64,000 nucleotides of DNA from Cryobacterium sp. GrIS_2_6 (GTDB lineage Bacteria > Actinomycetota > Actinomycetes > Actinomycetales > Microbacteriaceae). The position numbers were made by a program, and so were the translations under genes. This document shows positions 4,174 through 63,664 of the stretch, one piece after another. The stretch lies in assembly GCF_035984545.1 (NCBI RefSeq), contig NZ_JAXCHP010000001.1, forward strand, positions 2,666,001-2,730,000. Direction: 5' to 3'. Positions within the stretch are counted from its first letter, which is position 1, and each line of letters begins with the position of its first letter. The notes under the pieces were generated by a model. It did not search any database, had not been told where the DNA came from, and worked only from the letters and a program-made list of their open reading frames with translations.

Positions 4174-5181
<1,008 letters not shown>

Positions 5182-5218
5182 GCGCCGCAGCCGCACCGCC
5201 CCGACTCACGCGCCGACA

Positions 5219-5286
5219 CAACTGTGGCCGATTCGGACAACTGTTGCCGGCTCGCGGGCCGCAATCGTCCGAATCGGCCACAGTTG
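5219..5286. repeat. 68-bp palindromic element, copy 1 (family B)
   Basis: Perfect 20-bp inverted arms CAACTGTGGCCGATTCGGAC (5219-5238) and its exact complement (5267-5286) enclose a 28-base loop that can itself pair. Two diverged copies of identical total length lie at 16065-16132 and 44223-44290. The element sits between the convergent 3' ends of trpS and glpK, so it may terminate or protect both transcripts. No T run follows either arm. Confidence 0.9.
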
Positions 5287-5310
5287 CCGGTATCGCTCTA
5301 ACGCGCTGGG

Positions 5311-6825
5311 CTAGAGGACGTCCTCGTCCACCCAGTCGAGGGACTTGGTGATGGCCTTTTTCCAGTTGCGCAGCAGCCGGTCACGCTCGGCGACGTCGAG
5401 CTTCGGCTCCCAGCGTGCGTCCTCCTGCCAGTTCGCGCGGAGCTCGTCGAGGTCGTTCCAGAAGCCGACCGCGAGGCCGGCCGCATACGCCGCGCCCAGC
5501 GCGGTCGTCTCGGCGACCACCGGGCGCACCACGGACACGCCGAGGATGTCGGCCTGGAACTGCATCAGCAAGTCGTTGGCCGCGGCGCCGCCGTCGACCT
5601 TGAGCTCGGTGAGTGGGACACCGGAGTCGGCGTTGACGGCGTCGAGCACTTCGCGGGACTGGTACGCGATTGCCTCGAGTGCGGCCCGGGCGATGTGGCC
5701 CTTGTTCACATAGCCAGTCAGGCCCACCAGGGCGCCCCGGGCATCGGCACGCCAGTACGGCGCGAACAGCCCGGAGAACGCGGGAACGAAGTAGGCGCCG
5801 CCGTTGTCCGTGACGGAGAGGGCGAGGGCTTCGATCTCGGAGGCCGAGCCGATGATGCCGAGGTTGTCGCGCAGCCACTGGACGAGCGCGCCGGTGACGG
5901 CGATCGACCCCTCGAGCGCGTAGTGCGTCTCGCCGTCGCCGAGCTTGTAGCCCACGGTCGTGAGCAGCCCGTTCTGGGAGTGCACGATCTCGGTGCCGGT
6001 GTTGAAGATCAGGAAGTTACCGGTGCCGTAGGTGTTCTTCGCCTCGCCCTGGTCGAACGCGGCCTGGCCGAACGTTGCGGCCTGCTGGTCGCCGAGGATG
6101 CCGGCGATCGGGGTCTCGCGAAGCAGGCTGTGTTCGCTCGCGATGCCGTAAACCTCGGAGGAAGACCGGATCTCGGGCAGCATCGACCGGGGCACGTTGA
6201 AGGCGGCGAGGATGTCGTCGTCCCATTGCAGGGTTTCGAGGTCCATGAACATTGTGCGGCTCGCGTTGGTGACGTCAGTCGCGTGCACGCCGCCCTCCAG
6301 GCCACCGGTGAGGTTCCAGAGCACCCAGGAGTCCGTCGTGCCGAACATCAGCTCGCCGGCATCCGCCTTGGCCCGGGCGCCCTCCACGTTCTCGAGGATC
6401 CAGACGATCTTCGTGCCCGAGAAATACGTCGCCAGGGGCAGGCCGACCTGCTTCTTGAAGCGCTCGACACCACCGTCGGCGGCGAGCCGGTCGACGATGG
6501 GCTGGGTGCGGGTGTCCTGCCACACGATCGCGTTGTAGACGGGGAGCCCGGTGGTGCGGTCCCAGACCACGGCGGTCTCACGCTGGTTGGTGATGCCGAC
6601 GGCGTCGATGTCGTGCCGGGTCAGGTTCGCCTTGGACAGTGCCTGCCCGATGACCTCGCGGGTGTTGTTCCAGATCTCCATCGGGTCATGCTCGACCCAG
6701 CCGGCACGCGGGAAGATCTGCTCGTGCTCGAGCTGGCCGGTCGAAACGATCGACCCCGCCTTGTCGAAGATGATCGCACGGGAACTGGTCGTCCCCTGGT
6801 CGATCGCAATGATGTACTGGGCCAT
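5311..6825 (-). CDS. glpK: Glycerol kinase
   Basis: 504-residue FGGY-family kinase that phosphorylates glycerol to sn-glycerol 3-phosphate. The N-terminus has the phosphate-binding motif [18 protein letters not shown] and the C-terminal [13 protein letters not shown] segment are typical of the family. The ATG at 6825 is preferred because AAGGAG lies at optimal distance upstream; a longer reading would add 23 residues unlike the family. It is the last of the glpD-glpF-glpK gene row, all on the minus strand. Confidence 0.97.
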
Positions 6826-6927
6826 TGAATACTCCTTTGTAGTCGTGCGGTTCAGGTTGGGTGTGGGAATTGCTAGCCGAACGTGCCGCGGCATCCGTCA
6901 ACGGAGGCCACGGCACTGGTTCCCTGG

Positions 6928-7692
6928 TTAGGCCAGGATGGGCAGGAGTGCGGTGGACAGGAGTCCGGCGAGCACGCCGCCGATGATGGGGCCGAGCACC
7001 GGAACCCAGGAGTATGACCAGTCCGAGGAACCCTTGCCCTTGATCGGCAGGATGAAGTGCGCGATTCGCGGACCGAGGTCACGGGCGGGGTTGATCGCGT
7101 AGCCGGTCGGCCCGCCGAGGGAGGTGCCGATCACGATGACGAGCAGGGCAACCGGGAGCGGGCCGAGCGCGGCAAGCCCGCCGTTGACACCCTGGCGGCC
7201 ACCGCCGAAGGCGATGATCACGAACACCAGCACGAACGTGCCGATGATCTCGGTAAGAAGGTTCCAGCCGTACGAACGGATGGCCGGACCGGTGGAGAAG
7301 ACACCGAGCTTGTTCGCCGGGTTCGGTTCCTGGTCGAAGTGCTGCTTGTACGCCAGCCAGCAGAAGACGGCGCCGATGATGGCTCCAAGCAGCTGCGCCC
7401 CGATGTAGGTCAGCACCGACAGGAAGTTCACCGGGACCCCGGAGCCGAATTCAGTGGCGCCGGATGCGACCAGGCCGAGGGTCACGGCGGGGTTCAGGTG
7501 CGCCCCCGAGTTGTAGGACACGATGACGCCGGAGAAGACCGCGAGGCCCCACCCGACCGTCACCATCAGGAAACCGCCGCCCAGGCCCTTGTTCTTGGCC
7601 AGGGCCACGTTGGCCACCACCCCACAACCAAGGAGGACCAGCAAGGCCGTGCCCACCAGCTCCGAAAGAAAAACGATACCGAGATTGTCCAC
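6928..7692 (-). CDS. glpF: Glycerol uptake facilitator (aquaglyceroporin, MIP family)
   Basis: 254-residue six-helix channel that lets glycerol enter the cell for GlpK. Both signature half-helix motifs are intact: NPA at residues 67-69 (in AHLNPAVTLG) and NPARD at 201-205. The Asp after the second NPA is typical of glycerol-conducting members rather than strict water channels. The GTG start has a weak AAGGG ribosome site upstream. About 100 bases separate it from glpK, so a shared transcript is likely. Confidence 0.95.
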   Translation of the reverse strand: MDNLGIVFLSELVGTALLVLLGCGVVANVALAKNKGLGGGFLMVTVGWGLAVFSGVIVSYNSGAHLNPAVTLGLVASGATEFGSGVPVNFLSVLTYIGAQLLGAIIGAVFCWLAYKQHFDQEPNPANKLGVFSTGPAIRSYGWNLLTEIIGTFVLVFVIIAFGGGRQGVNGGLAALGPLPVALLVIVIGTSLGGPTGYAINPARDLGPRIAHFILPIKGKGSSDWSYSWVPVLGPIIGGVLAGLLSTALLPILA

Positions 7693-7820
7693 ATTGACAC
7701 CCTTGTTCAGTGAAGCCGAGTTGTAACCGATGGTCGTGCAGCTGAGGTTCCGCCGATATACAGCGAAAACGAATCGTGAGAAACCTATCGGCCTGATGCA
7801 CTAATCGGTGCGTTCCGCCG

Positions 7821-7834
7821 TGCACGTTCGTGCA
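7821..7834. promoter_or_regulatory. Short palindrome in the glpD-glpF gap
   Basis: TGCACGTTCGTGCA has 6-bp perfect arms around a TT centre. It lies in the 151-base gap between glpD and glpF and could be an operator for the SorC-type regulator or part of a glpD end signal. I cannot tell which. Confidence 0.25.
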
Positions 7835-7843
7835 GATCGCGGG

Positions 7844-9610
7844 CTAGGCGAGCGAAGCGGATGCCTCGCCGACGCCGGAGAGGTCCACACCGTGCAGGTC
7901 GCGCAGCACGTCGACGGCGAGGTCGAGCTCGAAAGCGCGACGTGCGGAATCCCAGCCCAGCACGGGAGCGAGGACTCCGGCGAGTTCTTCGAGCAGCGCC
8001 AGGCTGAGCTCACCACGGAAGGCCATGCTCGTGCGTCGCAGAACGAGGTCGGTCAGGTGCACCACAGATTCTGTGGCCGCGAGGAACTCGATCTCCCGAC
8101 GGGAGTAATCGGCGTGGTGTTCCAGCGCTGCGTCCGGTTCCGCGGTGATGAAGTCGATCACGTCGACCGCGCGGGTGCCGTAGCGGGTCAACAGCTGGTC
8201 GGCCCTCGAGGCGCCGACCTCGTCGCCGTTCGCGGCGATCCAGACCCGGTGCGCGGCATCCGTGGCCGGGAAATTGCGCCCGCCGCCGATGGGAAGGCCG
8301 GCCGTCGACACGACCCGGGTGCGGCCGAGCAGGGTGAGGATGTCGCCGCTCAGGTGCTCGGCGAGGGCCCGGAACGTCGTCCACTTGCCGCCGACGAGGC
8401 TGAGAAGTGTGCCCGGTCGGGCACCGAGCGGACGGGACTCGATGCGGTAGTCGCGGGAGACGAACCCCGGTGCCTCGTCGTCGTGCCGCGGCAGCGGACG
8501 CACACCGGCGAACCGGAAGACGATCTCTGAGCGGTCGACGGCCACATCCGGGAAAACGTGCTTGACGAGATCGAAGAAGTAGTCGACCTCGTCCTCAGTG
8601 CAGCGCGCGGGCTGGGTCATATCGTGTTCGAGGTCGGTGGTGCCGACCAGCACCCGGCCCGCAAGCGGGAAGATCAACACGATGCGGCCGTCCTTGTGCT
8701 CGAAGAAGATCTCTCGGCCACCCGTGGCCGCGAGAAGCTCCAGGTTGTCGAGCACGATGTGCGACCCCTTGGTGCCGCCCATGTACGTGCTGGTCTGACC
8801 GAGGGCCGTGTTCGTGAGGTCGGTCCAGGGACCGGACGTGTTCACGACGATGTCGGCCTGGAAGCTGAATTCGGCGCCGGTGACCGCGTTCCGAAGACGC
8901 ACGCCCGCGGCATCCATGCCGATGGCCTCGATGTAGTTGGCGCTGCGCGCGTGCGCGCCGGCGGCCAGGCCGTCGGCCAGCACGTCGAGCGCGAGGCGCT
9001 CGGGGTCGTGCATGGAGGCGTCGAAGTAGGTGGCCGTGTACTTGAGGCCCGGGTTGAGGCGCGGCAGCAGTCTGAGCGATGCCTTCCTGCCGAGGAACTC
9101 GTGCCGGGGCACCGTGCCGCCGTCGCGGGAGAAGGAGTCGTAGAGCATCATGCCGATCTTGATCAGCAGGGCGCCACGTTCCTGGGCCGCACCCTGGCGG
9201 TGAGTGAGAAAGCGCATCGGCGCCGACATCACCCCGGAGAAGGTGGAGTAGATCGGAATAGTCGTCTTCAGGGGCTTGACGTAGTGCGGGGCGATCTTCA
9301 GCAGGCTGTTGCGTTCCTCGACCGACTCCTTGACCAGGCGGAATTCCCCGTTCTCGAGGTAGCGCACACCACCGTGGATCATGTGCGAGGAGGCCGACGA
9401 GGCGCCGGAGACGTAGTCGCCCTTGTCGACGATCGCGACGTCGACACCCTGCATCGCCAGGTCGCGGAAGGTCGCGATGCCGTTAATTCCGGCTCCGATG
9501 ATGAGCACCTGGGCCCGGGGGAGTTCCTGCAGGGCGGCCTGGGCGGCGGCTCCGGACAGCGGCCGGGCGGAGGATGACTGATCGGGAGTTGACGGCACTG
9601 ATTCGCTCAC
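7844..9610 (-). CDS. glpD: Aerobic glycerol-3-phosphate dehydrogenase
   Basis: 588-residue FAD-dependent, membrane-associated dehydrogenase oxidising glycerol 3-phosphate to dihydroxyacetone phosphate and feeding electrons to quinone. It has the dinucleotide-binding motif GAGINGIATFRDLAMQG, then DKGDYVSGASSASSHMIHGG, both typical of GlpD, and a C-terminal DAO_C domain. Start GTG at 9610 is preceded by AAGAAG. An N-terminal Ser/Pro-rich extension of about 30 residues precedes the FAD domain. It is transcribed divergently from the SorC-type regulator. Confidence 0.96.
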   Translation of the reverse strand: MSESVPSTPDQSSSARPLSGAAAQAALQELPRAQVLIIGAGINGIATFRDLAMQGVDVAIVDKGDYVSGASSASSHMIHGGVRYLENGEFRLVKESVEERNSLLKIAPHYVKPLKTTIPIYSTFSGVMSAPMRFLTHRQGAAQERGALLIKIGMMLYDSFSRDGGTVPRHEFLGRKASLRLLPRLNPGLKYTATYFDASMHDPERLALDVLADGLAAGAHARSANYIEAIGMDAAGVRLRNAVTGAEFSFQADIVVNTSGPWTDLTNTALGQTSTYMGGTKGSHIVLDNLELLAATGGREIFFEHKDGRIVLIFPLAGRVLVGTTDLEHDMTQPARCTEDEVDYFFDLVKHVFPDVAVDRSEIVFRFAGVRPLPRHDDEAPGFVSRDYRIESRPLGARPGTLLSLVGGKWTTFRALAEHLSGDILTLLGRTRVVSTAGLPIGGGRNFPATDAAHRVWIAANGDEVGASRADQLLTRYGTRAVDVIDFITAEPDAALEHHADYSRREIEFLAATESVVHLTDLVLRRTSMAFRGELSLALLEELAGVLAPVLGWDSARRAFELDLAVDVLRDLHGVDLSGVGEASASLA

Positions 9611-9627
9611 TTCTTTGCGGCTGGGAA

Positions 9628-9633
9628 ACTATA
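9628..9633 (-). promoter_or_regulatory. Putative -10 box for glpD
   Basis: On the minus strand TATAGT lies 17 bases upstream of the glpD GTG. No confident -35 was identified. Confidence 0.35.
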
Positions 9634-9712
9634 CGGGACGGGAAACTTCTCCTACCCTGCTAAGTTCTACACAAACGGTCAAGAGCTGTGAACATATGTG
9701 CAAGGAGTCTCC

Positions 9713-10684
9713 GTGATCCATCCGAATGATCCGCCCCTGTCCGACCGCACCACGGACGCCCTCACTGCGGCGCAACTGTATTACGTGCAGGACCTCACCA
9801 TGGAGGCCATCGCGCAGGAGCTGCACACCTCCCGTTCGTCGGTGTCCCGCCTGCTCAGCCAGGCCAGGGCCAGCGGGCTGGTCGACATCCAGATCCGCTC
9901 TCCGCTCGACGCTCCCAGCCGGGTCGAGAAGCTCATCCTGGACCGGTTCCAGGTCACCGCGCACGTTCTGCCGGTGCCCGACTATGCCAGCGACGTCGAC
10001 AGGCTGGAGCGAGTGGCCCTGTCCGTTGCACGGATTCTCGGCGAATTCTTCGACTCCAACATGATCATGGGCATCGCCTGGGGCTCCACGATGAATGCCG
10101 TCAGCCGCCACCTGACGCCGAAGCGCACCCACAACGCGCAGATCGTGCAGTTGAACGGCGCCGGAAACACCCGCAGCACGGGCCTCGACTACGCCAATGA
10201 GATCCTGCGGCGATTCAGCAACGCGTTCGACGCCCGCCTGGAACAGTTCCCGGTTCCCACCTTCTTCGACGACCCGGCCACACGCACGGCCTATTGGCGT
10301 GAACGCGGCCTGCGCCGGTTGCTGGAAATGCAGGGCAACATGGATGTCGCGCTCTTCAGCGTGGGATCGCCCTTCTCCATGGTTCCCAGCCACGTGTACG
10401 TCGGCGGCTACCTCGACGACGAGGAGTTCACGGCGCTCAGCGATGCCGGGGTCGTCGGCGACGTTGCGACGGTCTTCTACCGCGCGGACGGCTCGACCGA
10501 CGGCATCCCGCTCAACGACCGCGGGACCGGACCGGAACTGTCGGTGCTGCGCCGCACCCCGCGGCGCATCTGCGTTGTCGCAGGCACGTCCAAGGTGGAC
10601 AGCCTGCGCGGCGCGCTGGCCGCCGGCCTCATCACCGACCTGTTCATCGACGAGGGCACCGCCCGCGCCCTGGTCGGGTCGTAA
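9713..10684 (+). CDS. SorC/DeoR-type sugar-binding transcriptional regulator, probable glycerol regulator
   Basis: 323-residue regulator with an N-terminal helix-turn-helix (LYYVQDLTMEAIAQELHTSRSSVSRLLSQA) and a C-terminal SorC-like effector-binding domain (GIAWGSTMNAVSR, then DDEEFTALSDAGVVGD and a C-terminal GRP-like stretch). GTG at 9713 is preferred over the in-frame GTG at 9698 because AAGGAG at 9702-9707 is correctly spaced for it. The divergent position next to glpD suggests that it controls the glycerol genes in response to a phosphorylated intermediate; this is inference from context. A near-palindrome GAACATATGTGC at 9690-9701 is a candidate operator. Confidence 0.85.
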   Translation: MIHPNDPPLSDRTTDALTAAQLYYVQDLTMEAIAQELHTSRSSVSRLLSQARASGLVDIQIRSPLDAPSRVEKLILDRFQVTAHVLPVPDYASDVDRLERVALSVARILGEFFDSNMIMGIAWGSTMNAVSRHLTPKRTHNAQIVQLNGAGNTRSTGLDYANEILRRFSNAFDARLEQFPVPTFFDDPATRTAYWRERGLRRLLEMQGNMDVALFSVGSPFSMVPSHVYVGGYLDDEEFTALSDAGVVGDVATVFYRADGSTDGIPLNDRGTGPELSVLRRTPRRICVVAGTSKVDSLRGALAAGLITDLFIDEGTARALVGS

Positions 10685-10745
10685 GAAAACGTCCAAATCC
10701 TGCACAGGGCCAGGAGGGAATTATCCGGGAGTGGTGGCGTTGGGC

Positions 10746-10751
10746 TATAAC
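10746..10751 (+). promoter_or_regulatory. Putative -10 box of the rib operon
   Basis: TATAAC lies about 12 bases before the first conserved riboswitch stem, which would place the transcript start just upstream of the aptamer. Confidence 0.5.
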
Positions 10752-10763
10752 TAGAAGCAAGAA

Positions 10764-10891
10764 ACGTGCTCCGGGGTCGGTGTAAATCCGAACCGGCGGT
10801 GAAAGTCCGCGACCCGTTCCGCTCCAGGGTGAAACGGTTGAGCTGGTGAAATTCCAGCACCGACGGTTAAAGTCCGGATGAGAGGCGCACG
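10764..10891 (+). promoter_or_regulatory. FMN riboswitch (RFN element)
   Basis: The conserved RFN blocks are present in order: a closing stem made by ACGTGC and GCGCACG, GGGTCGGTG, AATCCGAACCGGCGGT, AGTCCGCGACCC, GGTGAAATTCCAGCACCGACGG and AGTCCGGATGAGAGG (the longer block here is split over 10836-10858). It precedes ribD by about 95 bases. The aptamer binds FMN and lowers expression of riboflavin synthesis genes when FMN is plentiful. Confidence 0.95.
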
Positions 10892-10902
10892 ATTCGGTTG
10901 GA

Positions 10903-10922
10903 CCTTCGGGGCCCGCCGAAGG
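10903..10922 (+). terminator. Hairpin in riboswitch expression platform
   Basis: CCTTCGG and CCGAAGG form a perfect 7-bp stem around a 6-base loop, 11 bases after the aptamer, followed by only a short AT stretch. It may act in transcriptional or translational control of ribD; the mode cannot be decided from the sequence. Confidence 0.5.
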
Positions 10923-10986
10923 ATTATGGCGTACGCGTATCCACAATCCACCCCCGGAGTTCGTTGCAGAAACGAATGAGGCGGGA

Positions 10987-12045
10987 ATGATCCAGGACAC
11001 CGAGCGTGACGTCCTCATGCGGCGCGCCCTCTCCCTCGCCGCCAACGGCCCGGCGACCGGGCTGAACCCGCGGGTCGGCTGCGTCATCGTCGACCCGGAC
11101 GGTGTCGTACTGGCCGAAGGCTGGCACCGCGGCGCCGGTACTGCCCACGCCGAGGTCGACGCCCTGTCGCACCTCCCGGCCGGGTCCGCCCGCGGCGCGA
11201 CCGTCATCGTCACCCTCGAACCGTGCAACCACACCGGCCGCACCGGCCCCTGCGCCGTCGCCCTGATCGAAGCGGACGTGAGCCGGGTGATCTTCGCCGT
11301 CTCCGATCCCGGCCGCGCGTCGTCCGGCGGCGCAGAGCGACTCCGCGCCGCCGGCGTCGAGGTCGTCGGCGGAGTGCTCGCCGGCGAGGGAGAAGCCTTC
11401 CTCGCCGACTGGCTGGTCGCCGCCCGGCTCGGCCGTCCGTTCGTGACGCTCAAGTGGGCCTCGAGCCTCGACGGCCGGACCGCCGCGGCCGACGGCTCGA
11501 GCCGCTGGATCACCGGCCCGGATGCCCGCCTCGACGTGCACCGGCGGCGCGCGGCCGCAGGCGCGATCCTCGTCGGCACCGGCACCGTGCTCGCCGACGA
11601 CCCGGCCCTCACCGCCCGTGCCGCCGACGGAAGCCTGCTCCCGACCCAGCCGGTCCCCGTGGTGATCGGCACCCGCGCGGTGCCCGCGGATGCCACTATC
11701 CGGCAGCACCCGCATCCGCCGCTGTTCTACCCCGGCCCCGACCTCAACGAGATCCTCCACGACCTGCACGCCCGCGGCATCCGCAGCGCATTCATCGAGG
11801 GCGGACCGGGACTCGCGAGCGCCTTCGTCGGGTCCGGGCTCGTCGACGAATACCTCGTCTACCTCGCTCCGACCCTGCTCGGCGGCGGCCGGCTCGCCGT
11901 CGGCGACATCGGCGTGACCGGGATCGACCAGCAGCGCCGGCTCACGGTCGAGGGCATCGAGCGCCTCGGCGAGGACCTGCTCGTGATCGCCCGGCCGCGG
12001 GACTTCCCGCACGTGGAAACCGCACACACAGAGACAAGGATCTGA
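10987..12045 (+). CDS. ribD: Bifunctional riboflavin deaminase/reductase RibD
   Basis: 352-residue fusion of a zinc-dependent deaminase (residues 1-145) and an NADPH reductase domain, catalysing the second and third steps of riboflavin synthesis. The zinc site is visible as HAE at 54-56 and PCNHTGRTGPC with C80 and C89. The reductase part shows KWASSLDGR and the EGGPGLASAF segment. It is the first gene of ribD-ribE-ribBA-ribH behind the FMN riboswitch; its stop is one base before the ribE ATG. Confidence 0.96.
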   Translation: MIQDTERDVLMRRALSLAANGPATGLNPRVGCVIVDPDGVVLAEGWHRGAGTAHAEVDALSHLPAGSARGATVIVTLEPCNHTGRTGPCAVALIEADVSRVIFAVSDPGRASSGGAERLRAAGVEVVGGVLAGEGEAFLADWLVAARLGRPFVTLKWASSLDGRTAAADGSSRWITGPDARLDVHRRRAAAGAILVGTGTVLADDPALTARAADGSLLPTQPVPVVIGTRAVPADATIRQHPHPPLFYPGPDLNEILHDLHARGIRSAFIEGGPGLASAFVGSGLVDEYLVYLAPTLLGGGRLAVGDIGVTGIDQQRRLTVEGIERLGEDLLVIARPRDFPHVETAHTETRI

Positions 12046-12046
12046 C

Positions 12047-12679
12047 ATGTTCACCGGAATCATCGAGGAACTCGGCACCGTCGACCGGGTCGAACACGGC
12101 ACGGATGCCGTACGCCTGACCGTCCGCGGGCCCCTCGCCGTGTCCGGGGCCGCGATCGGCGACTCGATCTCCGTCAACGGCGTCTGCCTGACCGTCGTGG
12201 AGCGCACGCCGGAAACGTTCACCGCCGACGTGATGGCGCAGACCCTGCGGATGTCGACCCTCGCCGAGGCGGGGCCAGGGACCCCGGTCAACCTCGAGCG
12301 CGCCGCCCTCGTCGGCGGGCGCCTGGGCGGACACATCGTGCAGGGCCACATCGACGGCACGAGCGAGCTGCTCGCGGTCACCCCGGGCGACGCCTGGCGC
12401 GTGCTGCGGTTCAGCCTCTCCCCCGAGCTCGCGCCCCTCGTGACGAACAAGGGCTCGATCGCCGTCGACGGGGTCTCCCTCACGGTCAGCACGATCAGCC
12501 CGGCGACCGAACCCGAGCAGTGGTTCGAAGTCTCCCTCATCCCCGAAACCCTCACGGCCACGACGCTCGGAAAACGAACGGTCGGAGAGCACGTCAACAT
12601 CGAAACCGATATCCTGGCCCGCCACGTCGAGCGCATGCTCGCCCTCGCGGACGCAGGATCACGAAGGAGTCACTCATGA
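12047..12679 (+). CDS. ribE: Riboflavin synthase alpha subunit
   Basis: 210-residue enzyme that dismutates two 6,7-dimethyl-8-ribityllumazine molecules to riboflavin. It starts with the diagnostic MFTGIIEELG and has the two tandem lumazine-binding barrels, each with a SVNGVCLTV or AVDGVSLTV motif and GRLGGHIVQGHIDG between them. The stop overlaps the ribBA start in ATGA. Length is normal. Confidence 0.97.
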   Translation: MFTGIIEELGTVDRVEHGTDAVRLTVRGPLAVSGAAIGDSISVNGVCLTVVERTPETFTADVMAQTLRMSTLAEAGPGTPVNLERAALVGGRLGGHIVQGHIDGTSELLAVTPGDAWRVLRFSLSPELAPLVTNKGSIAVDGVSLTVSTISPATEPEQWFEVSLIPETLTATTLGKRTVGEHVNIETDILARHVERMLALADAGSRRSHS

Positions 12680-13938
12680 GCCTCGCAGACATCCCCAGCG
12701 CGCTCGCGGAACTGCGTCTCGGCAAGCCGGTCATCGTCGCCGACGACGAAGGCAGGGAGAACGAGGGTGACGTGATCATCTCGGGGCAGATGGCCACCCA
12801 GGAATGGCTCGCGTGGACCGTGCGCTACTCCTCGGGTTTCATCTGCGCGCCGATGACCAATGAGCTCGCCGACAAGCTCAACCTGCCGATCATGGTGCCG
12901 AACAACGAAGACCCCCGCGGCACGAACTACACGATCTCCGTCGACGCCGCCGACCGGCTGAGCACCGGCATCAGCGCCGCAGACCGTGCCCACACCCTGC
13001 GCGTGCTCGCCGACCCGGCATCCACCCCGTCGAGCCTGCACCGGCCGGGCCACATCATGCCGCTGCGCGCAAAGGACGGCGGCGTGCGCGAACGCGACGG
13101 CCACACCGAGGCCGCCGTCGACCTGATGAAACTCGCCGGGCTCGCCCCCGTCGCGGGAATCTCCGAGATCGTCGGAGAAGACGGCGAGATGATGCGCCTG
13201 CCCGGCCTCCTCGAACTCGGCGAACGCGAGGGAGTGCTCGTGATCACGATCGCCGACCTGATCGCCTACCTCGACGAGTTCCACGCGGACTCCGAGCTGC
13301 CGACCGCGCACGCCATCCGGGAATCCCCGCGCGTCGACTTCGAGGTCGAGACGACCGTGCCGACCCGGCACGGCGACTTCCAGATCCGGGCATACCGCGA
13401 TCGGATGACCGGAGCGGACCACGTCGCCCTCGTCTCGGGGACGCCCCGGGACGGCGCCCTCGTGCGGGTGCACTCCGAGTGCCTCACCGGGGAGGCCTTC
13501 GGCTCGCTCAAGTGCGAGTGCGGACCGCAGCTCGACGCGGCTCTCGAAACCATCCAGGCAGAGGGCGGCATCGTGATCTACCTGCGCGGCCAGGAGGGTC
13601 GTGGCATCGGCCTGATCAACAAGCTGCGGGCATACAAGCTCCAGGAACAGGGCCTCGACACGATCGACGCGAACCTCGCCCTCGGCCTGCCCGCCGACGC
13701 CCGCGACTACGGCGCCGCGAGCGCCATCCTCGACCAGATGGGCATCTCCTCGGTGCGCCTGCTCACCAACAACCCCGAGAAGCTCCGCCAGCTCGAAGAG
13801 CACGGGGTCACGGTTCTCGAACGCGTTCCGCTGATCGTCGGCGTGGGCATCGACAACCAGGAGTACCTCGCCGTGAAACGAGAACGCATGGGCCACCACC
13901 TGGCCGACCGGGACATCCTGAAAGGACTCGCACTATGA
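12676..13938 (+). CDS. ribBA: Bifunctional DHBP synthase / GTP cyclohydrolase II
   Basis: 420-residue fusion. The N-terminal half is 3,4-dihydroxy-2-butanone 4-phosphate synthase with the acidic metal site DDEGRENEGD near residue 23. The C-terminal half is GTP cyclohydrolase II with zinc cysteines in SECLTGEAFGSLKCECG and the catalytic GQEGRGIGL. Together they supply both precursors of lumazine. The ATG at 12676 overlaps the ribE stop and follows AAGGAG at proper spacing. Confidence 0.97.
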   Translation: MSLADIPSALAELRLGKPVIVADDEGRENEGDVIISGQMATQEWLAWTVRYSSGFICAPMTNELADKLNLPIMVPNNEDPRGTNYTISVDAADRLSTGISAADRAHTLRVLADPASTPSSLHRPGHIMPLRAKDGGVRERDGHTEAAVDLMKLAGLAPVAGISEIVGEDGEMMRLPGLLELGEREGVLVITIADLIAYLDEFHADSELPTAHAIRESPRVDFEVETTVPTRHGDFQIRAYRDRMTGADHVALVSGTPRDGALVRVHSECLTGEAFGSLKCECGPQLDAALETIQAEGGIVIYLRGQEGRGIGLINKLRAYKLQEQGLDTIDANLALGLPADARDYGAASAILDQMGISSVRLLTNNPEKLRQLEEHGVTVLERVPLIVGVGIDNQEYLAVKRERMGHHLADRDILKGLAL

Positions 13939-14414
13939 GTGGAGCAGGCTCGCCCACGGTCGTCGTCGACGGCACGGGCCTCAACATCGTCATCATCGCC
14001 GGCCGCTGGCACGACGTCATCACCGACGGGCTCATCGCCGGCGCCACCCGGGTGCTCGAGGCATCCGGCGCCACGTTCTCGCTCGTGCGCGTGCCGGGCA
14101 GCTTCGAGTTGCCGGTCGCTGCGAAGGTCGCTCTCGGGAATGGGGCGGATGCCGTGATCGCGCTCGGTGTGATCATCCGCGGCGGCACCCCGCACTTCGA
14201 GTACGTGTCCGCGGCCGCAACGGACGGCCTCACCCGGGTCGCTCTCGACACCGGGAAGCCGGTCGGCTTCGGCGTGCTCACCCTCGACGACGAACAGCAG
14301 GGCCTCGACAGGGCCGGCCTGCCCGGTTCCAAGGAGGACAAGGGCGAGGAAGCGGCATCCGCCGCTATCAACACCGCCCAGGTGCTGCGCGCCCTCCGTA
14401 TGCCGAATTCGTAA
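13935..14414 (+). CDS. ribH: Lumazine synthase (riboflavin synthase beta subunit)
   Basis: 159-residue enzyme that condenses the RibA and RibB products into lumazine and normally forms a 60-mer or pentamer. Typical features are VVRVPGSFELPVAAK-like (here LVRVPGSFELPVAAK), GVIIRGGTPHFEYV and GVLTLDDEQQ. ATG overlaps the ribBA stop in ATGA, and a GGACTC-type weak ribosome site precedes it. It is the last gene of the riboflavin operon. Confidence 0.96.
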   Translation: MSGAGSPTVVVDGTGLNIVIIAGRWHDVITDGLIAGATRVLEASGATFSLVRVPGSFELPVAAKVALGNGADAVIALGVIIRGGTPHFEYVSAAATDGLTRVALDTGKPVGFGVLTLDDEQQGLDRAGLPGSKEDKGEEAASAAINTAQVLRALRMPNS

Positions 14415-14437
14415 TACCCGAGATCGGTCACTGGGAG

Positions 14438-14458
14438 CGGATGCCGAGGGGGCATCCG
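14438..14458 (+). terminator. Hairpin after the rib operon
   Basis: CGGATGCC and GGCATCCG form a perfect 8-bp stem with a 5-base loop 24 bases after ribH. There is no T run. Both arms are copies of the word that is over-represented through the whole window, so the hairpin may be a by-product of that. Nothing else is visible in 14459-14680. Confidence 0.4.
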
Positions 14459-14680
14459 ATCTCACCCTCGGCCCCGGAAACGGAAAGTCCCGATTGGGGG
14501 ACGGTTCGCCTCAGGATTTGAGTCCGACGAGTCACGGACGTATGGTGCAGAGTGACCGCCACAAGCGGACACCTCCCTCCGGGCAACCCCCGCGCGGGCA
14601 CGACGCCTGATCGACGCCGGCGCTCCCGCACGGGTCGACACGCCCGCTCACGCCCCCTCACCACGGAATGACTCTCTTCC

Positions 14681-16048
14681 ATGTCCTCATCCACTCTGTC
14701 GCATCCGTCAGCCGCCACCCCCGCGCCGCAGGCGCCCACCAACCCCCGCAGCCGCGTCGTGCTCGCGAGCCTCATCGGCACGACGATCGAGTTCTACGAC
14801 TTCTACGTCTACGCGACCGCGGCGGTGCTCGTCTTCCCGCACCTCTTCTTCCCGACCGGCAATGAGACCACGGCGCTGCTCGCCTCCTTCGCGGTCTTCG
14901 GCGCGGCCATGGTCGCCCGTCCCGTCGGCGCCCTCGTTTTCGGGCACTTCGGCGACAAGGTCGGCCGCAAGGCGACCCTCGTCGGCGCGCTGCTCACGAT
15001 GGGCATCGCGACCTTCCTGATCGGACTGCTGCCGACGTACGCCCAGGTCGGCTGGTTCGCCCCGCTGCTGCTCGTCGTGCTGCGCCTCGCCCAGGGCTTC
15101 GCGCTCGGTGGAGAGTGGAGCGGTGCCGCCCTCGTGGCGACGGAGAACGCCCCGAAGGGCAAACGCGCCTGGTACGGGACCTTCCCGCAGGTCGGCGCGC
15201 CGATCGGCTTCATCATCGCGAACGGGTTGTTCCTGCTGATCGCCACGCTGCTGCCGAGCGACGACCCCACCCGGCCGTCAACCGCGTTCCTCGAGTGGGC
15301 CTGGCGGGTGCCGTTCCTGTTCTCTGCGGTGATGGTCATCATCGGCCTGTGGGTGCGGCTGCGCCTCGTGGAGAGCGACGCCTTCACGAAGGCCGCGCGC
15401 ACGAACCGGGTGCACAAGCTCCCGCTCGCCGCGGTTTTCAAGTCCAACTGGCGCGAACTGATCCTCGGCACATTCATCATGCTCGCGACCTACGTGCTGT
15501 TCTACCTGATGACGACGTTCAGCCTGAGCTACGGCCGTGCGGCGACGACCGCTCCCGTCGCGGGCCTCGGCTACAGCTACACGACCTTCGTGCTGATGAT
15601 GATCGTCGGCGTGCTGTTCTTCGGCGTGTTCACCCTCGCCTCCGGGCCCTGGGCCGACCGCTTCGGCCGCCGCCGCACCCTGATCTGGGTCACCCTCGCG
15701 ATCATCGTCTTCGGACTGCTCTTCGTGCCGCTGCTCGGCGCCGGGTTCCTCGGCGTGATGATCTTCCTGATCCTCGGCTTCACCCTGATGGGCATGACGT
15801 TCGGGCCGATGGGCGCCCTCCTGCCCGAGCTGTTCCCGACGGCGGTGCGGTACACGGGTTCGGCGTTCGCGTACAACATGAGCTCGATCCTCGGTGCGGC
15901 GGTCGCCCCGTTCATCGCAGTCTGGCTCTGGACGCTCGGCGGTGGCAGCCCGTTCTGGGTCGGCGTGTACCTCTCGGTGATGGCGGTCATCACGCTGGTC
16001 GCCCTCCTGCTCAGCCGAGAGACCAAGGACGTCGACATCGAGGCGTAG
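14681..16048 (+). CDS. MHS-family MFS metabolite:H+ symporter
   Basis: 455-residue twelve-helix transporter of the metabolite:proton symporter branch (relatives include shikimate, proline/betaine and alpha-ketoglutarate carriers). Signatures are GTTIEFYDFYVYATAA in helix 1, GHFGDKVGRK between helices 2 and 3, and LALGGEWSGAAL-like sequence (FALGGEWSGAAL) in helix 4. The second half has a GPWADRFGRRR copy of the loop motif. Substrate cannot be told from sequence. It follows the riboflavin operon, but a riboflavin role would be speculation because known riboflavin carriers belong to other families. Confidence 0.9.
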   Translation: MSSSTLSHPSAATPAPQAPTNPRSRVVLASLIGTTIEFYDFYVYATAAVLVFPHLFFPTGNETTALLASFAVFGAAMVARPVGALVFGHFGDKVGRKATLVGALLTMGIATFLIGLLPTYAQVGWFAPLLLVVLRLAQGFALGGEWSGAALVATENAPKGKRAWYGTFPQVGAPIGFIIANGLFLLIATLLPSDDPTRPSTAFLEWAWRVPFLFSAVMVIIGLWVRLRLVESDAFTKAARTNRVHKLPLAAVFKSNWRELILGTFIMLATYVLFYLMTTFSLSYGRAATTAPVAGLGYSYTTFVLMMIVGVLFFGVFTLASGPWADRFGRRRTLIWVTLAIIVFGLLFVPLLGAGFLGVMIFLILGFTLMGMTFGPMGALLPELFPTAVRYTGSAFAYNMSSILGAAVAPFIAVWLWTLGGGSPFWVGVYLSVMAVITLVALLLSRETKDVDIEA

Positions 16049-16064
16049 CCGGCCCACTCCCCGG

Positions 16065-16132
16065 TAACTGTTGCAGTTTCGGACGACTGTGGCTCCTGTA
16101 CGGGCCGCAATTGTCCGAAGCGGCAACCGTTG
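16065..16132. repeat. 68-bp palindromic element, copy 2 (family B)
   Basis: Same length and layout as the copy at 5219: arms TAACTGTTGCAGTTTCGGAC and GTCCGAAGCGGCAACCGTTG pair at 16 of 20 positions, and the loop keeps the CGGGCCGCAAT core. It starts 16 bases after the symporter stop and ends before the -10 box of the ABC exporter gene. Confidence 0.85.
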
Positions 16133-16148
16133 CGTATGCCGCTGCGGT

Positions 16149-16154
16149 TAGGCT
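16149..16154 (+). promoter_or_regulatory. Putative -10 box (TAGGCT) for leaderless ABC exporter transcript
   Basis: TAGGCT ends 6 bases before GTG at 16161. This spacing favours GTG over the TTG one codon upstream as the real start. Confidence 0.55.
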
Positions 16155-16160
16155 CGATTG

Positions 16161-19010
16161 GTGAGTACCCCGACCAGTGACACCAGCACGCCCGCCGAGA
16201 CCGCACCATCCACCGGTCCCGCACCGGCACCCAAGCCGCGCAGCCGCCTCGGGCGTCTCGGGCGCAGGGCGGATGCCGCGAACGGCCCGCGCGCGACCTT
16301 CGGCCAGCTGCTCCCCTACCTTCTCGAGCACAAGAAGGTGCTCAGTGTCGTCGTCGTGCTGAGCATTCTGGGGGCGCTCGCGAGCCTCGCCCAGCCTCTG
16401 CTGGTCAGCCAGGTCATCACCGTCGTGCAACAGAACCAGCCCCTCGGCGCGCTCGTGTGGGGGCTCGTCGCGCTCGTGGTCGTGTCCGGGCTGATCAGCG
16501 GCTACCAGCACTACCTGCTGCAGCGCACCGGGGAGGGCGTCGTGCTCTCGAGCCGGCGCAAGCTCATCGGGCGGATGCTGCGCCTCCCGATCAGCGAATT
16601 CGACACCCGCCGCACGGGCGACCTCGTCTCCCGGGTCGGCTCGGACACGACCCTGCTGCGCGCCGTGCTCACCCAGGGACTCGTCGAGGCGATCGGCGGG
16701 TCGCTCACCTTCCTCGGCGCGCTGATCGCGATGCTCGTGATCGACCCGGTGCTGCTCGGGCTGACCGTGCTCGTGATCGCGGCATCCGTCGTCACGGTCA
16801 CGCTGCTGTCGCAGCGGATCCGCGTCGCAAGCCGCATGGCCCAGGAGAAGGTCGGCGCCCTCGCCGCGAGCGTCGAGCGGGCGATCAGCGCGATCCGCAC
16901 CGTACGTGCCTCGAACGCGACAGACCGCGAGATCGCGGCCGTCGACGCCGACGCGACCGGCGCGTACCAGATGGGCCTGGAGGTCGCGAAGATCTCGGCC
17001 CTCGTCGTGCCGATCGCCGGCATCGCCATGCAGGTGTCATTCCTCGTCGTGCTCGGCGTCGGCGGCTTCCGGGTCGCGAGCGGCCAGATCACGGTCGCGA
17101 ACCTGATCGCGTTCATCCTCTTCCTGTTCCTGATGATCCTGCCGCTTGGCCAGGCCTTCGGCGCGATCACCTCGGTCAACTCGGCGCTCGGCGCCCTCGG
17201 CCGCATCCAGGAGATCGTCGACCTGCCCGCCGAGGACCAGTTCGACCGCGACCTGTTCCCGCTCGCGATCACCGTAGGCGCCGCCAACGAATCGGTGCGG
17301 CCGGACGCCCCCGCGATCTCCTTCGAGAACGTGTTCTTCGGGTATGCGACCCAGGCGTCGACGGCGGATGCCGCGGTGCCCGTCGACGCCGCAGGTGACG
17401 GCGTGCCTGGTGCCGGGTCTGGTGCCGGGTCTGGTGCCGGCGGTTCGCCTGCCGGTCTCCCCGCGGACGCCATGCCGAACGCGCTCGTGACGGCCCTCGT
17501 CGCTCCCGGCGTGATCGAGGCGATGCTCGCCGAACCCGACCTGGTCGACGCCGACCTCGCCGCCGCCGACCGCGCCGCCGCCGACCGGGCGGCCGTCGAC
17601 CTGGCGCACGCCGAGCAGGCCGCCGCCCACCTTGCCGCAGCGGAGCACGCCGCCGCGACCATGGCCGCCGCGCGTCCCGCCGCCGCCCTCGCCGCGGAGT
17701 CCGCGGCCGCGGCGACCGCCTCCGCCAGGGCCGCCGCGACCTCCGCTGCCTCTGCCGAGGCCGCCGCCGAGGCATCGGCCGCGATGACCGCAGCGGTGTA
17801 TGCGGCGGCGACCGGGACCGTGTCGATCGCCGCGGTCGCAGCGGCCACGGCGTTTGCCGCCCCGACCCCGGCCCGGGCCGCCGACGCCGAGGTGCCCTGC
17901 CTTTCCGCCGCGGACGGCTCCGCGGCCGACGCCCCTGGTACCGTTGTCTCGCCCGATGCGCCCGATGCGCCCGATGCGCCCGCCTCAGCCACTTCGGCTA
18001 CCTCAGTCGATTCGCCTGCGTCGCCTGCGTCGCCCGCTTCGCCCGCTTCGCGTGCCTCGGCCACTTCGCATGCCTCGGCCAGTTCTGAGACCTCGGATAC
18101 CGAGGCCGTTGCGTTCGCCGGCACGGCCGCCGGCAGGGCCGCCGCCGGCGCATCCGCGACCGCTCCGACGCCGAGCACGCCGTCCGATCCCGGGCCCGAC
18201 GACGGTCCGCACACCGCCCCGGCTTTCGGGTCCGCAGATGACACCGGTGCGCCCAGCGTCGACGCCGGTGCGGCCGGCTCAGTCGGCACCGGGATCGATG
18301 CCGGCCCGGCCGCTGACCCGTCCGAGCCGCGGCCCGTTCTGCGCGGGGTTTCTTTCAGCGCTCCGCGCGGACTGCGCACCGCGCTCGTCGGCCCGTCCGG
18401 CGCCGGGAAGAGCACCATTCTGGCGCTCATCGAACGGTTCTACGACCCGAACGCGGGCGTCGTGCGACTGGGCGGGCTGGACATCCGCACCCTGGATCGC
18501 ACGGCGCTGCGGTCGCAGATCGGCTACGTCGAGCAGGACGCCCCCGTGCTCGCCGGCTCGCTGCGCGACAACCTCGTGCTCTCGGCGCCGGATGCGACCG
18601 ACGAGGAGTGCATCGCCGTGCTGCACGCGGTCAACCTCGGCGAGGTGCTCGAGCGCGACCCGGCCGGGCTCGCCGCAGCCGTCGGGGAATCCGGCGTGAT
18701 GCTCTCCGGCGGGGAGCGCCAGCGGCTCGCGATCGCGCGTGCGCTGCTCGCGGCGCCGCCGATCCTGCTGCTCGACGAGTCGACCTCGAGCCTCGACGGG
18801 GTCAACGAGCAGTTGATGAGGGCTGCGATCGACGCCGTCGCCGTCGACCGCACGCTCATCGTGATCGCGCACCGGCTCTCGACCGTCGTCGACTCCGACC
18901 AGATCGTGGTGCTCGACCACGGCCAGGTGATCGGGACAGGGACGCACTCCGAGCTCGTCGTCTCGACGCCGCTCTATCGCGAGCTCGCCAAGCACCAGCT
19001 GCTCGTCTAA
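16161..19010 (+). CDS. ABC-type exporter (TMD-NBD half transporter) with a large Ala-rich insertion in the ATPase domain
   Basis: 949-residue fused permease-ATPase, far longer than the usual 580-620. Residues 50-365 are the six-helix exporter domain. The ATPase domain begins with FENVFFGY (A-loop Tyr395), then about 325 residues of Ala/Ser/Pro/Asp-rich low-complexity sequence intervene, and the domain resumes with PVLRGVSF at 725. After that it is intact: Walker A GPSGAGKST at 744-752, Q-loop GYVEQD, signature LSGGERQR at 848, Walker B LLLDES with catalytic Glu near 874, and the H-loop AHRLS. The insert contains short DNA repeats (GATGCGCCC three times) and a region of Ala-rich helix. No partner half-transporter is adjacent, so a homodimer is likely. 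Substrate is unknown. Confidence 0.9.
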   Translation: MSTPTSDTSTPAETAPSTGPAPAPKPRSRLGRLGRRADAANGPRATFGQLLPYLLEHKKVLSVVVVLSILGALASLAQPLLVSQVITVVQQNQPLGALVWGLVALVVVSGLISGYQHYLLQRTGEGVVLSSRRKLIGRMLRLPISEFDTRRTGDLVSRVGSDTTLLRAVLTQGLVEAIGGSLTFLGALIAMLVIDPVLLGLTVLVIAASVVTVTLLSQRIRVASRMAQEKVGALAASVERAISAIRTVRASNATDREIAAVDADATGAYQMGLEVAKISALVVPIAGIAMQVSFLVVLGVGGFRVASGQITVANLIAFILFLFLMILPLGQAFGAITSVNSALGALGRIQEIVDLPAEDQFDRDLFPLAITVGAANESVRPDAPAISFENVFFGYATQASTADAAVPVDAAGDGVPGAGSGAGSGAGGSPAGLPADAMPNALVTALVAPGVIEAMLAEPDLVDADLAAADRAAADRAAVDLAHAEQAAAHLAAAEHAAATMAAARPAAALAAESAAAATASARAAATSAASAEAAAEASAAMTAAVYAAATGTVSIAAVAAATAFAAPTPARAADAEVPCLSAADGSAADAPGTVVSPDAPDAPDAPASATSATSVDSPASPASPASPASRASATSHASASSETSDTEAVAFAGTAAGRAAAGASATAPTPSTPSDPGPDDGPHTAPAFGSADDTGAPSVDAGAAGSVGTGIDAGPAADPSEPRPVLRGVSFSAPRGLRTALVGPSGAGKSTILALIERFYDPNAGVVRLGGLDIRTLDRTALRSQIGYVEQDAPVLAGSLRDNLVLSAPDATDEECIAVLHAVNLGEVLERDPAGLAAAVGESGVMLSGGERQRLAIARALLAAPPILLLDESTSSLDGVNEQLMRAAIDAVAVDRTLIVIAHRLSTVVDSDQIVVLDHGQVIGTGTHSELVVSTPLYRELAKHQLLV

Positions 19011-44222: not shown

Positions 44223-44290
44223 AAACTGTGGCCGATATGGACAACAGTTCCCGGTGGGCGGGCAACAGGTGTCCCCATCGGCAACAGTTG
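44223..44290. repeat. 68-bp palindromic element, copy 3 (family B)
   Basis: Arms AAACTGTGGCCGATATGGAC and GTCCCCATCGGCAACAGTTG pair at 16 of 20 positions around a 28-base loop. Total length equals that of the copies at 5219 and 16065. It lies 40 bases beyond the 3' end of pncA. Confidence 0.85.
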
Positions 44291-55805: not shown

Positions 55806-57011
55806 TCATGACGCGGGACGACCGGGACGTCCGGCCCCTTTCTCGCAGCATCCACTCGGGCACACGTCACCCCATCGGCCACCCTGAGGTGTCGCATATC
55901 GAGGTTCGCAGGCCGCGCGAACGTTGATCTGCGACACCTCACGGGTACCAATGCGGCCGTGCAGGCGCTCGAGGGCGAGCCCGGCGAGGGCGGCGACGAA
56001 GGCGGGGTGGATGCCGGGGGTTGCGACGCGTTCCATCGCCAGTCCGAGGCTGGCTGCGGTGGCGGCGGCCTCGGTATCAAGGTCCCAGAGCACCTCCATG
56101 TGGTCGGAGATGAAGCCGATCGGCACGATCACGACGGCCTCGGTTCCGTCGGCGGCGAGCGCCCTGAGGGCGTCGTTGACGTCGGGTTCGAGCCACGGCA
56201 GCGCCGGTGGGCCGGAGCGGGACTGGAAGGCGAGCGACCAGGCCGGCCGGGATGGGTCGGGGATGGCGGCAGCGCCGGATTCGGCGTGGGCGGCGGGATC
56301 GCCGGGATCGGCGAGGGCGGACATCACGGCGACCGCGACGGCCCGGTGCTGGGCGAGGTAGGCCCCACCCGCGCCCCAGCCGGCGTCGCGCGGACCACTG
56401 CGGTCAGCATCCGCTGTCGGGATCGAGTGCGTTGTGAAGAGCACGTGGGTGCGATCGACCGGCACGCCCCGCGCGGCGAGGCGGGCGAGCGCGGCACGCG
56501 CGCCCTCGACGAAGGGCAGGACGAAGCCGGACGCGTCGAAGTAGGGGCGCACCGCGTCGATGCGCACGGTGGCGTCGAGTCCGGTTGCCGTCAGGGCCCC
56601 CGCGATGTCCTCACGGTACTGGCGGCAGCTCGAGTACGAGCTGTACGCGCTCGTCGTGATCGCGAGGAGCCGGGTATGACCGGCAGCGGATGCCGCCCGC
56701 ACGGTGTCCGCGAGCAGGGGCGTCCAGTTGCGGTTGCCCCAGTACACCGGCAGCGGCTCACCCCGGTCGGCCAACTCCACCTCGAGGGCGGCCCGCAGGG
56801 CCCGGTTCTGCCCGTTGACCGGGCTCACTCCCCCGAACGCACGGTAATGGGTCGCGACGGTCTCGAGCCGTTCCTCGGGGATGCCGCGGCCACGGGTGAC
56901 GTTACGGAGGAAGGGGATGACGTCGTCCTGCCCCTCGGGGCCGCCGAAGCCGAGCAGGAGCACGGCGTCGTATGCGCGGTCAGGCTGGGTCTCCTCCCCC
57001 GTCTCGCTCAT
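55806..57011 (-). CDS. hemH: Ferrochelatase (coproporphyrin type) with a palindrome-coded insert near the C-terminus
   Basis: 401-residue chelatase that inserts iron into coproporphyrin III (or protoporphyrin) in heme synthesis. LLLGFGGPEGQDDVIPFL starts the domain; TTSAYSSYSSCRQY and FTTHSIP (His) are conserved, as is PIGFISDHMEVLWDLD. The tail has CPSGCC, like the cysteine-rich end of actinobacterial 2Fe-2S ferrochelatases. Between LERLHGRIG and RWGDVCPSGCC, residues REVSQINVRAACEPRYATPQ are coded by a 57-bp palindrome (55885-55941), apparently an in-frame insertion. The gene overlaps the radical SAM gene in ATGA. Confidence 0.93.
   Translation of the reverse strand: MSETGEETQPDRAYDAVLLLGFGGPEGQDDVIPFLRNVTRGRGIPEERLETVATHYRAFGGVSPVNGQNRALRAALEVELADRGEPLPVYWGNRNWTPLLADTVRAASAAGHTRLLAITTSAYSSYSSCRQYREDIAGALTATGLDATVRIDAVRPYFDASGFVLPFVEGARAALARLAARGVPVDRTHVLFTTHSIPTADADRSGPRDAGWGAGGAYLAQHRAVAVAVMSALADPGDPAAHAESGAAAIPDPSRPAWSLAFQSRSGPPALPWLEPDVNDALRALAADGTEAVVIVPIGFISDHMEVLWDLDTEAAATAASLGLAMERVATPGIHPAFVAALAGLALERLHGRIGTREVSQINVRAACEPRYATPQGGRWGDVCPSGCCEKGAGRPGRPAS
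55885..55941. repeat. 57-bp palindromic element inside hemH (family C)
   Basis: TGAGGTGTCGCA (55885-55896) and TGCGACACCTCA (55930-55941) are perfect 12-bp arms. The interior pairs further at 10 of 13 positions, leaving a 7-base loop, so almost the whole element is one hairpin. Length of 57 equals 19 codons, which keeps the hemH frame open. Confidence 0.88.
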
Positions 57012-63531: not shown

Positions 63532-63539
63532 CCCGCCCC

Positions 63540-63624
63540 AACCAATTCGACGGAGTTTTTGATGAAAAAGCACGTAGGAACGAGATTGAAGCGCTTTCCG
63601 GGCAAAATCTCCGTCGAATTGGTT
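63540..63624. repeat. 85-bp palindromic element, intact copy (family A)
   Basis: Perfect 16-bp arms AACCAATTCGACGGAG (63540-63555) and CTCCGTCGAATTGGTT (63609-63624), bordered inside by T and A runs, enclose a 53-base centre. It starts 9 bases after the LysR stop. The same arms are found split by the IS at 19051 and 20630. Confidence 0.9.
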
Positions 63625-63664
63625 CGGGCTCGGCCAGCGGATGCCGCGGTCAGGTGACGCGGTG

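What the first reader, a model, noticed from the sequence alone, without database searches (positions are those of the whole stretch)
5219..5286. A family of 68-bp palindromes with 20-bp arms, three copies, constant length
Copies at 5219-5286, 16065-16132 and 44223-44290 are each exactly 68 bp: 20-bp arms and a 28-base loop. Arm 1 of the first copy pairs perfectly; the others pair at 16 of 20. Sequence differs between copies but length and layout do not, and the loop keeps a related core. All three sit just beyond gene 3' ends (trpS/glpK, the symporter, pncA). This suggests a mobile hairpin element or a conserved 3' RNA structure rather than random terminators.
Basis: seen in the sequence. Interest (0 to 1): 0.75.

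Follow-up and report, generated by a model that had tools for sequence, protein, structure and literature searches.

The report
Interchangeable palindromic repeats at gene ends
The three 68-base hairpins belong to a dispersed repeat family of the bacterium Cryobacterium that, like about nine other hairpin families there, sits just after genes; at some genes the hairpin differs in family from species to species, which suggests mobile but useful gene-end signals.

Summary
In detail: 68-bp palindromes with 20, 16 and 16 of 20 outer pairs. The "loop" also pairs. Each element is four imperfect copies of a 12-bp unit (about CAACTGTKGCCG), two per arm, 19 bp apart.

They are a dispersed Cryobacterium family: 16 distinct model matches at E<=1e-6 in the own genome; in 24 congeners 0 to 124 strand matches, the cap. 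Of 25 copies examined, 24 flank a gene 3' end, 23 within 50 bp of a stop. In 40 copies the arms covary (90 double-changed cells against 52.7 shuffled, 0/500).

About ten palindrome families behave alike. Palindromes follow the symporter in 20 of 21 loci and glpK in 29 of 30, of at least six kinds each by eye. At pncA few loci have one, and genome-wide replacement is only suggestive (11 of 30, P 0.07).

No Y1 transposase in 25 Cryobacterium genomes; no target duplication, no T-run. Best reading: REP/ERIC-like mobile palindromes kept as 3'-end hairpins. Mobiliser unknown; termination untested.

The parts
5219..5286 (.). 68-bp palindrome copy 1, between convergent trpS-type (stop 5181) and glpK-type (stop 5311) genes
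   Evidence: also present in G341 and G346, not in G337
16065..16132 (.). 68-bp palindrome copy 2, 16 bp after the stop of an MFS transporter (14681-16048)
   Evidence: in G341, G346 and G337 a different palindrome stands at this place
44223..44290 (.). 68-bp palindrome copy 3, 3' of a pncA-like isochorismatase gene (44331-44930, minus strand), upstream of a DUF4397 gene
   Evidence: present in G346, absent in G341, another palindrome in G337
5219..5230 (+). 12-bp unit 1 of copy 1 (CAACTGTGGCCG); units 2, 3 and 4 at 5238-5249 (+), 5256-5267 (-) and 5275-5286 (-)
   Evidence: unit repeat read from the sequence; test on elements of other genera
63535..63629 (.). Palindrome of another family (fam7, CCAATTCGACGGAGTTTTT arms), 3 bp after a LysR-type gene, facing a converging predicted gene
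55870..55956 (.). Palindrome with the motif of another family (fam1, TGAGGTGTCGCATATCGAGGTTC)
   Evidence: I1; fam1 motif

Best explanation
The three copies are members of a dispersed, non-coding palindromic repeat family (REP/ERIC-like in kind) of Cryobacterium. Each element is a palindrome of four imperfect 12-bp units. SHOWN by sequence: the family is repeated in the genome and genus, sits just 3' of stop codons, keeps its arms complementary by changes on both sides, and differs in presence or family at orthologous sites. INFERRED: copies spread by duplicative transposition through an unidentified enzyme that recognises the unit array, and insertions are kept mainly where they are harmless or useful, just downstream of genes. 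INFERRED: once transcribed, the nearly symmetric hairpin works from both sides as a U-less 3'-end hairpin (bidirectional terminator or barrier to 3' exonucleases), so that different palindrome families can stand in for one another at the same gene end.
For: Copies: 9 clean full-length copies by BLAST and 16 distinct model places at E<=1e-6 in the own genome (the 9 built the model, and at least one of the 16, at 2221895, is of the sister type fam2). Placement: 24 of 25 copies flank a 3' end. Ten families together: 143 of 160 elements intergenic, where 13-15% of the DNA is; convergent regions 19 observed/5.6 expected (own segments) and 52/18.6 (G341); divergent 1/8.0 and 9/21.0. Covariation in 40 copies: 85.3% of cells paired vs 80.7 shuffled, 90 double-changed cells vs 52.7, 0/500 each; spacer triplets without shared sequence pair 1.75 of 3 vs 1.06. 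19 orthologous same-family pairs: 7 compensated double changes vs about 0.8 expected; 6.9% of stem sides changed vs 191 of 891 aligned flank bases. Replacement: the symporter 3' end has fam2 in G346, G341 and G337 but fam8 in G000.
Against: No empty site with target duplication was found; several 'empty' sites lack more than the palindrome and two keep part of one, so some are deletions. No mobiliser found. Genome-wide, replacement by another palindrome is not clearly above the base rate of 3' hairpins: 11 of 30 non-redundant sites, 7.2 expected, P 0.07 (G000 to G341 8 of 14, P 0.002; the reverse 7 of 20, P 0.21). At pncA only 3 of 18 more distant loci have a palindrome. With the 9 own copies alone covariation was not significant, and two measures are weak (42/500 and 20/500). 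The 40 copies include orthologues, and the tool warns that relatedness alone can exceed shuffles. Arm covariation could also come from palindrome-templated DNA repair rather than RNA function. No transcript data.
Confidence: 0.6

Rival explanations
1. Purely selfish palindromic repeats (MITE- or REP-like) with no function; the 3'-end placement only reflects that insertions elsewhere are removed by selection.
For: Depletion in coding and divergent regions, presence/absence at orthologous sites, wide range of copy number, replacement genome-wide near the base rate.
Against: Stems change less than flanks and carry compensated changes between orthologues (only sites where both species still have a palindrome were compared); two gene ends hold some hairpin in nearly all loci examined, of several kinds.
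Confidence: 0.25
2. Ordinary locus-specific terminators that resemble one another; not a repeat family spread by copying.
For: GC-rich stems at 3' ends; structured 3' ends that lack uridine tracts are reported for Streptomyces clavuligerus (PMC8269248, passages read).
Against: Mean column identity of 80% over 72 columns in 40 copies at different places is hard to get by convergence; sites differ in family between close species.
Confidence: 0.05
3. DNA-protein site: the four repeated units are an operator- or nucleoid-type binding array, and the hairpin is incidental.
For: Four units with a fixed 19-bp offset; in 27 elements of other genera unit 1 matches unit 2 of the same element more than units of other elements (7.7 vs 5.44 of 12, 0 of 5000 permutations).
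Against: The spacer triplets, which carry no shared sequence, still pair; placement is at 3' ends rather than in divergent (promoter) regions.
Confidence: 0.1

Closest known systems
REP / BIME elements (GTAG and CGTC superfamilies) with RAYT transposases
   Same: Extragenic palindromic repeats in many copies, several families per genome, lineage-specific copy number
   Different: REPs are 20-40 bp with an unpaired GTAG or CGTC motif at one end (PMC3733652, abstract and passages). Here 68 bp, nearly symmetric, four units; PF01797 (Y1_Tnp) in 0 of 25 Cryobacterium genomes and in 1 of 37 genomes of the same family
ERIC (127-bp enterobacterial palindromes; recalled, not tested)
   Same: Longer imperfect intergenic palindromes without a known transposase
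   Different: Different host, length and sequence; no four-unit layout that I know of (recalled)
Palindromic elements counted by RepRanger (PMC12306157, passages)
   Same: A genome-wide count of palindromic elements that includes three Actinomycetota (for example Arthrobacter livingstonensis)
   Different: The passages seen give counts per genome, not families, placement or turnover; no Microbacteriaceae term occurs in the text
Structured 3' ends without uridine tract ('I-shaped' terminators) of high-GC Gram-positives
   Same: Stable GC-rich hairpin at gene 3' ends without T-tract (PMC8269248, passages)
   Different: In the passages seen they are single sites, not repeat families that replace one another
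Terminators formed by paired DNA uptake sequences (mentioned in PMC2267715, passage)
   Same: A short repeated motif in inverted pairs at gene ends
   Different: Single units are not enriched outside the elements in the window: 12 of 23 near matches lie in the three elements, leaving 11 against 11.1 expected

Membership tests
REP (GTAG/CGTC) | 20-40 bp palindrome with unpaired GTAG or CGTC end motif | tested here: not met
   68 bp; flanks of 40 copies show only a C/G bias, no conserved tag
REP (GTAG/CGTC) | RAYT / Y1 transposase in the genome or lineage | tested here: not met
   PF01797 in 0 of 25 Cryobacterium genomes; the same search rings in 5 of 14 control genomes; 1 of 37 family genomes
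REP/ERIC-like dispersed palindromic repeats (broad sense) | Many dispersed extragenic palindromic copies with lineage-specific copy number | tested here: met
Rho-independent (intrinsic) terminator | GC-rich stem-loop followed by a T-tract | tested here: not met
   TTT within 12 nt 3' of 0 of 40 copies, AAA within 12 nt 5' of 1 of 40; the terminator scan of 5000-17000 does not list copies 1 and 2
U-less 3'-end hairpin | RNA 3' ends or termination at the hairpin | not testable with these tools
   no RNA data held
MITE of a DDE insertion sequence | Target site duplication at the edges | tested here: not met
   mean longest edge repeat 2.2 vs 2.3 shuffled, 4 or more bases in 2 of 40
MITE of a DDE insertion sequence | Autonomous element with the same ends carrying a transposase | tested here: inconclusive
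   arm pairs 500-4000 bp apart in 2.46 Mb; among the proteins printed for 7 such stretches one, beside the outer edge of a fam7 stretch, looks like a DDE integrase by my reading (no family search), none lies between fam8 arms; most of the own genome was not read
Known Rfam RNA family | Match above gathering score | tested here: not met
   In the window only an FMN riboswitch; lax scan of 5100-5400 gives 4 weak microRNA-model matches far below gathering

The most novel reading that the evidence does not exclude
Microbacteriaceae carry a superfamily of mobile palindromes built as four-unit arrays. Each subfamily has its own unit sequence, read by its own unidentified, RAYT-independent mobiliser, and all share one job: to supply bidirectional 3'-end hairpins. 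Gene ends keep a hairpin while the repeat family that supplies it is exchanged as species diverge.
Probability: 0.3. Interest if true: 0.75.

Novelty: new variant of a known kind. Interest (0 to 1): 0.55.

Why it matters
If true, part of the 3' ends of genes in these bacteria is supplied by mobile repeats. That ties terminator evolution to a class of small mobile elements that lacks the usual REP transposase. It would give a clear system in which to find a new mobiliser of palindromic DNA, and to test whether swapped hairpins keep gene-end function.

Tried and rejected
Chance hairpins: rejected; 0-1% of shuffled 3' regions (base shuffles) reach score 13, against 35% (convergent) and 15-16% (tandem) of real ones. 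Y1/RAYT mobilisation: not supported. Phage or plasmid carriage: no match for a consensus-like 72-mer at E<=1e-3. Insertion sequence ends: nothing convincing for fam8. Target duplication: none. DNA uptake sequence: not supported in the window. A link to DUF559-type genes near palindromes in G341: 1 of 3 such genes has an element within 400 bp against 246 of 2319 genes, so no support. attC-like reading: considered from recall only and dropped. Genome-wide test of hairpin replacement: only suggestive. Covariation within the own genome alone: not significant. First attempts to align copies with wrong registers were replaced. For the 40-copy alignment 10 of the 50 places were left out: 4 duplicates of L137 (in L131 and L133), L037 (one base short), and 5 of another sequence type (two in L038, and L039, L040, L041).

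Literature: in the rows listed by searches (1 to 20 rows of up to 3,093 papers) I saw no paper on such repeats in Cryobacterium or Microbacteriaceae; only open-licence papers are held, and ERIC was not searched. PMC12306157, PMC8269248, PMC2267715, PMC3733652 and PMC7381226 were seen as passages only; other papers as listings.

Full report
OBSERVATION. Each is 68 bp; the outer 20 positions pair 20, 16 and 16 times. Pairing goes on inside the supposed loop (26, 23 and 23 of the outer 31), and the single strands fold below shuffled sequence on both strands. The copies are alike in sequence (82% mean column identity). Each arm holds a motif like CAACTGTKGCCG twice, 19 bp apart, so an element is four imperfect units in mirror order.

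MORE COPIES. A BLAST search of the own genome with copy 1 gave 9 clean full-length copies, the three included, besides weaker ones. A covariance model of those 9 (A4, R1) found 16 distinct places at E<=1e-6 and 25 at E<=0.01 in the own genome; at least the one at 2221895 is of a sister family. That search scored 150 of 1956 candidates, so the count may be low. Several weak single matches, and the best match of G021, are other hairpins by their sequence. A strict exact pattern gave 7 stretches in named genomes, all Cryobacterium. Among 299 sampled genomes of the family, own genome included, 47 had a match at E<=1e-4, in 28 of 85 genera, with weaker scores outside the genus (stricter filters, 16 candidates scored per genome).

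PLACEMENT. With an own gene caller, 24 of 25 Cryobacterium copies examined (11 own, 14 best hits of relatives) flank a gene 3' end, 23 of them within 50 bp of a stop codon; 11 are between convergent genes and 1 is divergent. Of 27 best hits in other genera 21 are convergent or tandem (18 of these within 60 bp of a stop), 2 divergent, 3 in predicted genes and 1 unplaced.

A WIDER CLASS. A motif-free palindrome search of 0.86 Mb of the own genome and 1.6 Mb of G341 found 395 palindromes, of which 16 clusters have three or more members. Ten clusters (fam0-fam9; ours is fam8, 10 members) have median lengths of 59-93 bp. Of their 160 members 143 are intergenic; in intergenic regions of 40-600 bp, convergent ones hold 19 (5.6 expected by length) and 52 (18.6), divergent ones 1 (8.0) and 9 (21.0). 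Of 132 members with a neighbouring stop codon 101 lie within 60 bp of it. The smaller clusters include ordinary-looking terminators. fam2 looks like a sister of fam8: its core CGGTCGACAGTCGCC matches CGGACAACTGTTGCC at 11 of 15 positions (read).

ARCHITECTURE. In the 27 hits from other genera the unit sequence differs from ours, yet unit 1 resembles unit 2 of the same element (7.7 of 12) more than units of other elements (5.44; 0 of 5000 permutations). Of four shifted controls three show nothing and one (shift 21) is borderline, p 0.04. The hits were chosen with our model; that alone should not create a match specific to each element. Within fam8 itself units of the same arm do not covary (p 0.66 and 0.13); only facing units do, the outer pair strongly (0 of 3000) and the inner pair weakly (p 0.02).

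STRUCTURE. In 40 fam8 copies 85.3% of cells pair (shuffled 80.7) and 90 cells are changed on both sides (52.7), 0 of 500 shuffles each; two other measures are weaker, 42 and 20 of 500. The copies include orthologues. With the 9 own copies alone the signal was not significant. Between G000 and G341, 19 orthologous same-family palindromes show 7 compensated double changes (about 0.8 expected if sides changed independently) and less change in stems than in flanks; these are sites where both species kept a palindrome. RNA function or palindrome-templated repair could each cause this.

TURNOVER. Of 34 fam0-9 elements in the own segments 33 map to G341: 19 same family, 8 another palindrome, 6 none. 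In the other direction 39 of 109 map (only 0.86 Mb of the own genome was at hand): 19, 7 and 13. Against base rates matched for orientation, replacement is only suggestive (11 of 30 non-redundant sites, 7.2 expected, P 0.07); some of those pairs have gaps of several hundred bases and are not exact replacements. G341 is a single contig of estimated completeness 83%. Two window sites, looked at in part of the 57 genomes, are clear. At the MFS symporter 20 of 21 loci have a palindrome after the stop: fam8 in G000, G277 and G359; fam2 in G346 and G337 (and in G341); a CGCGAAAGCGGTCATG type in 8; a GCGGGTGCGGCGCC type in 2; five single other ones; G340 has none. G346, G341 and G337 are the nearest to G000 by DNA identity at this locus (94, 92, 91%), so G000 most simply exchanged fam2 for fam8; no tree was built. 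At glpK 29 of 30 loci score 13 or more; G337, the exception, shows a long-loop palindrome; fam8 is seen only in G000, G341 and G346, and about ten loci have a short CCCGGC hairpin. At pncA fam8 is in G000 and G346, another palindrome is in G337, none is in G341, and 3 of the other 18 loci have a palindrome of score 13 or more. Family labels at these sites are by eye, and the species share ancestry, so loci are not independent.

MECHANISM. Spread by copying is inferred from sequence likeness at different sites. No enzyme was found: no Y1 transposase in 25 Cryobacterium genomes, no edge duplication, no match in the phage or plasmid collections. A repeat pair in G341 encloses a small gene where G000 has one hybrid-looking copy, which suggests deletion between copies. 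A 3'-end function without T-tract would resemble the U-lacking structured 3' ends reported in Streptomyces clavuligerus (PMC8269248, passages); it is untested here.

VERDICT. A real, dispersed and probably mobile palindrome family, one of about ten in the genus, sitting at gene ends and at least at two sites exchanged for other hairpins between species. It is a variant of the REP/ERIC kind, and not a REP by the tests done.

Noticed in passing
window 63535-63629: A 95-bp palindrome of another dispersed family (fam7, AATTCGACGGAG arms, long loop), three bases after a LysR-type gene; 62 matches to the fam7 arm motif in the 2.46 Mb read.
   Followed up: partly
window 55870-55956: A palindrome with the fam1 motif (TGAGGTGTCGCATATCGAGGTTCGC), a family with 22 members in 1.2 Mb of G341 but 3 in the 0.86 Mb of the own genome.
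   Followed up: partly
window 10763-10893: FMN riboswitch (RF00050, 103 bits), plus strand.
   Followed up: no
window 44149-44184: A second hairpin (16-bp arms, GTGGTGGTGGGAGGCA) next to copy 3, in the leader of the DUF4397 gene if that gene starts at the ATG after the AGGAGG (start inferred).
   Followed up: no
L137:200-271 and L137:836-907 (G341): Two fam8 copies enclose a predicted 125-aa gene; the own genome has one copy and no gene there, as expected from deletion between repeats.
   Followed up: partly
G341:C1 near 2900007 and 3094917: Two genes that I read as DUF559/AbiEi-like (naming recalled, no call) lie close to fam1 and fam7 arms; no statistical support with three such genes.
   Followed up: partly
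L131 and L133 (C. breve contig NZ_CP075584.1): Two fam8 copies with identical scores and spacing appear near both ends of the contig, as if the assembly overlapped at its ends.
   Followed up: no
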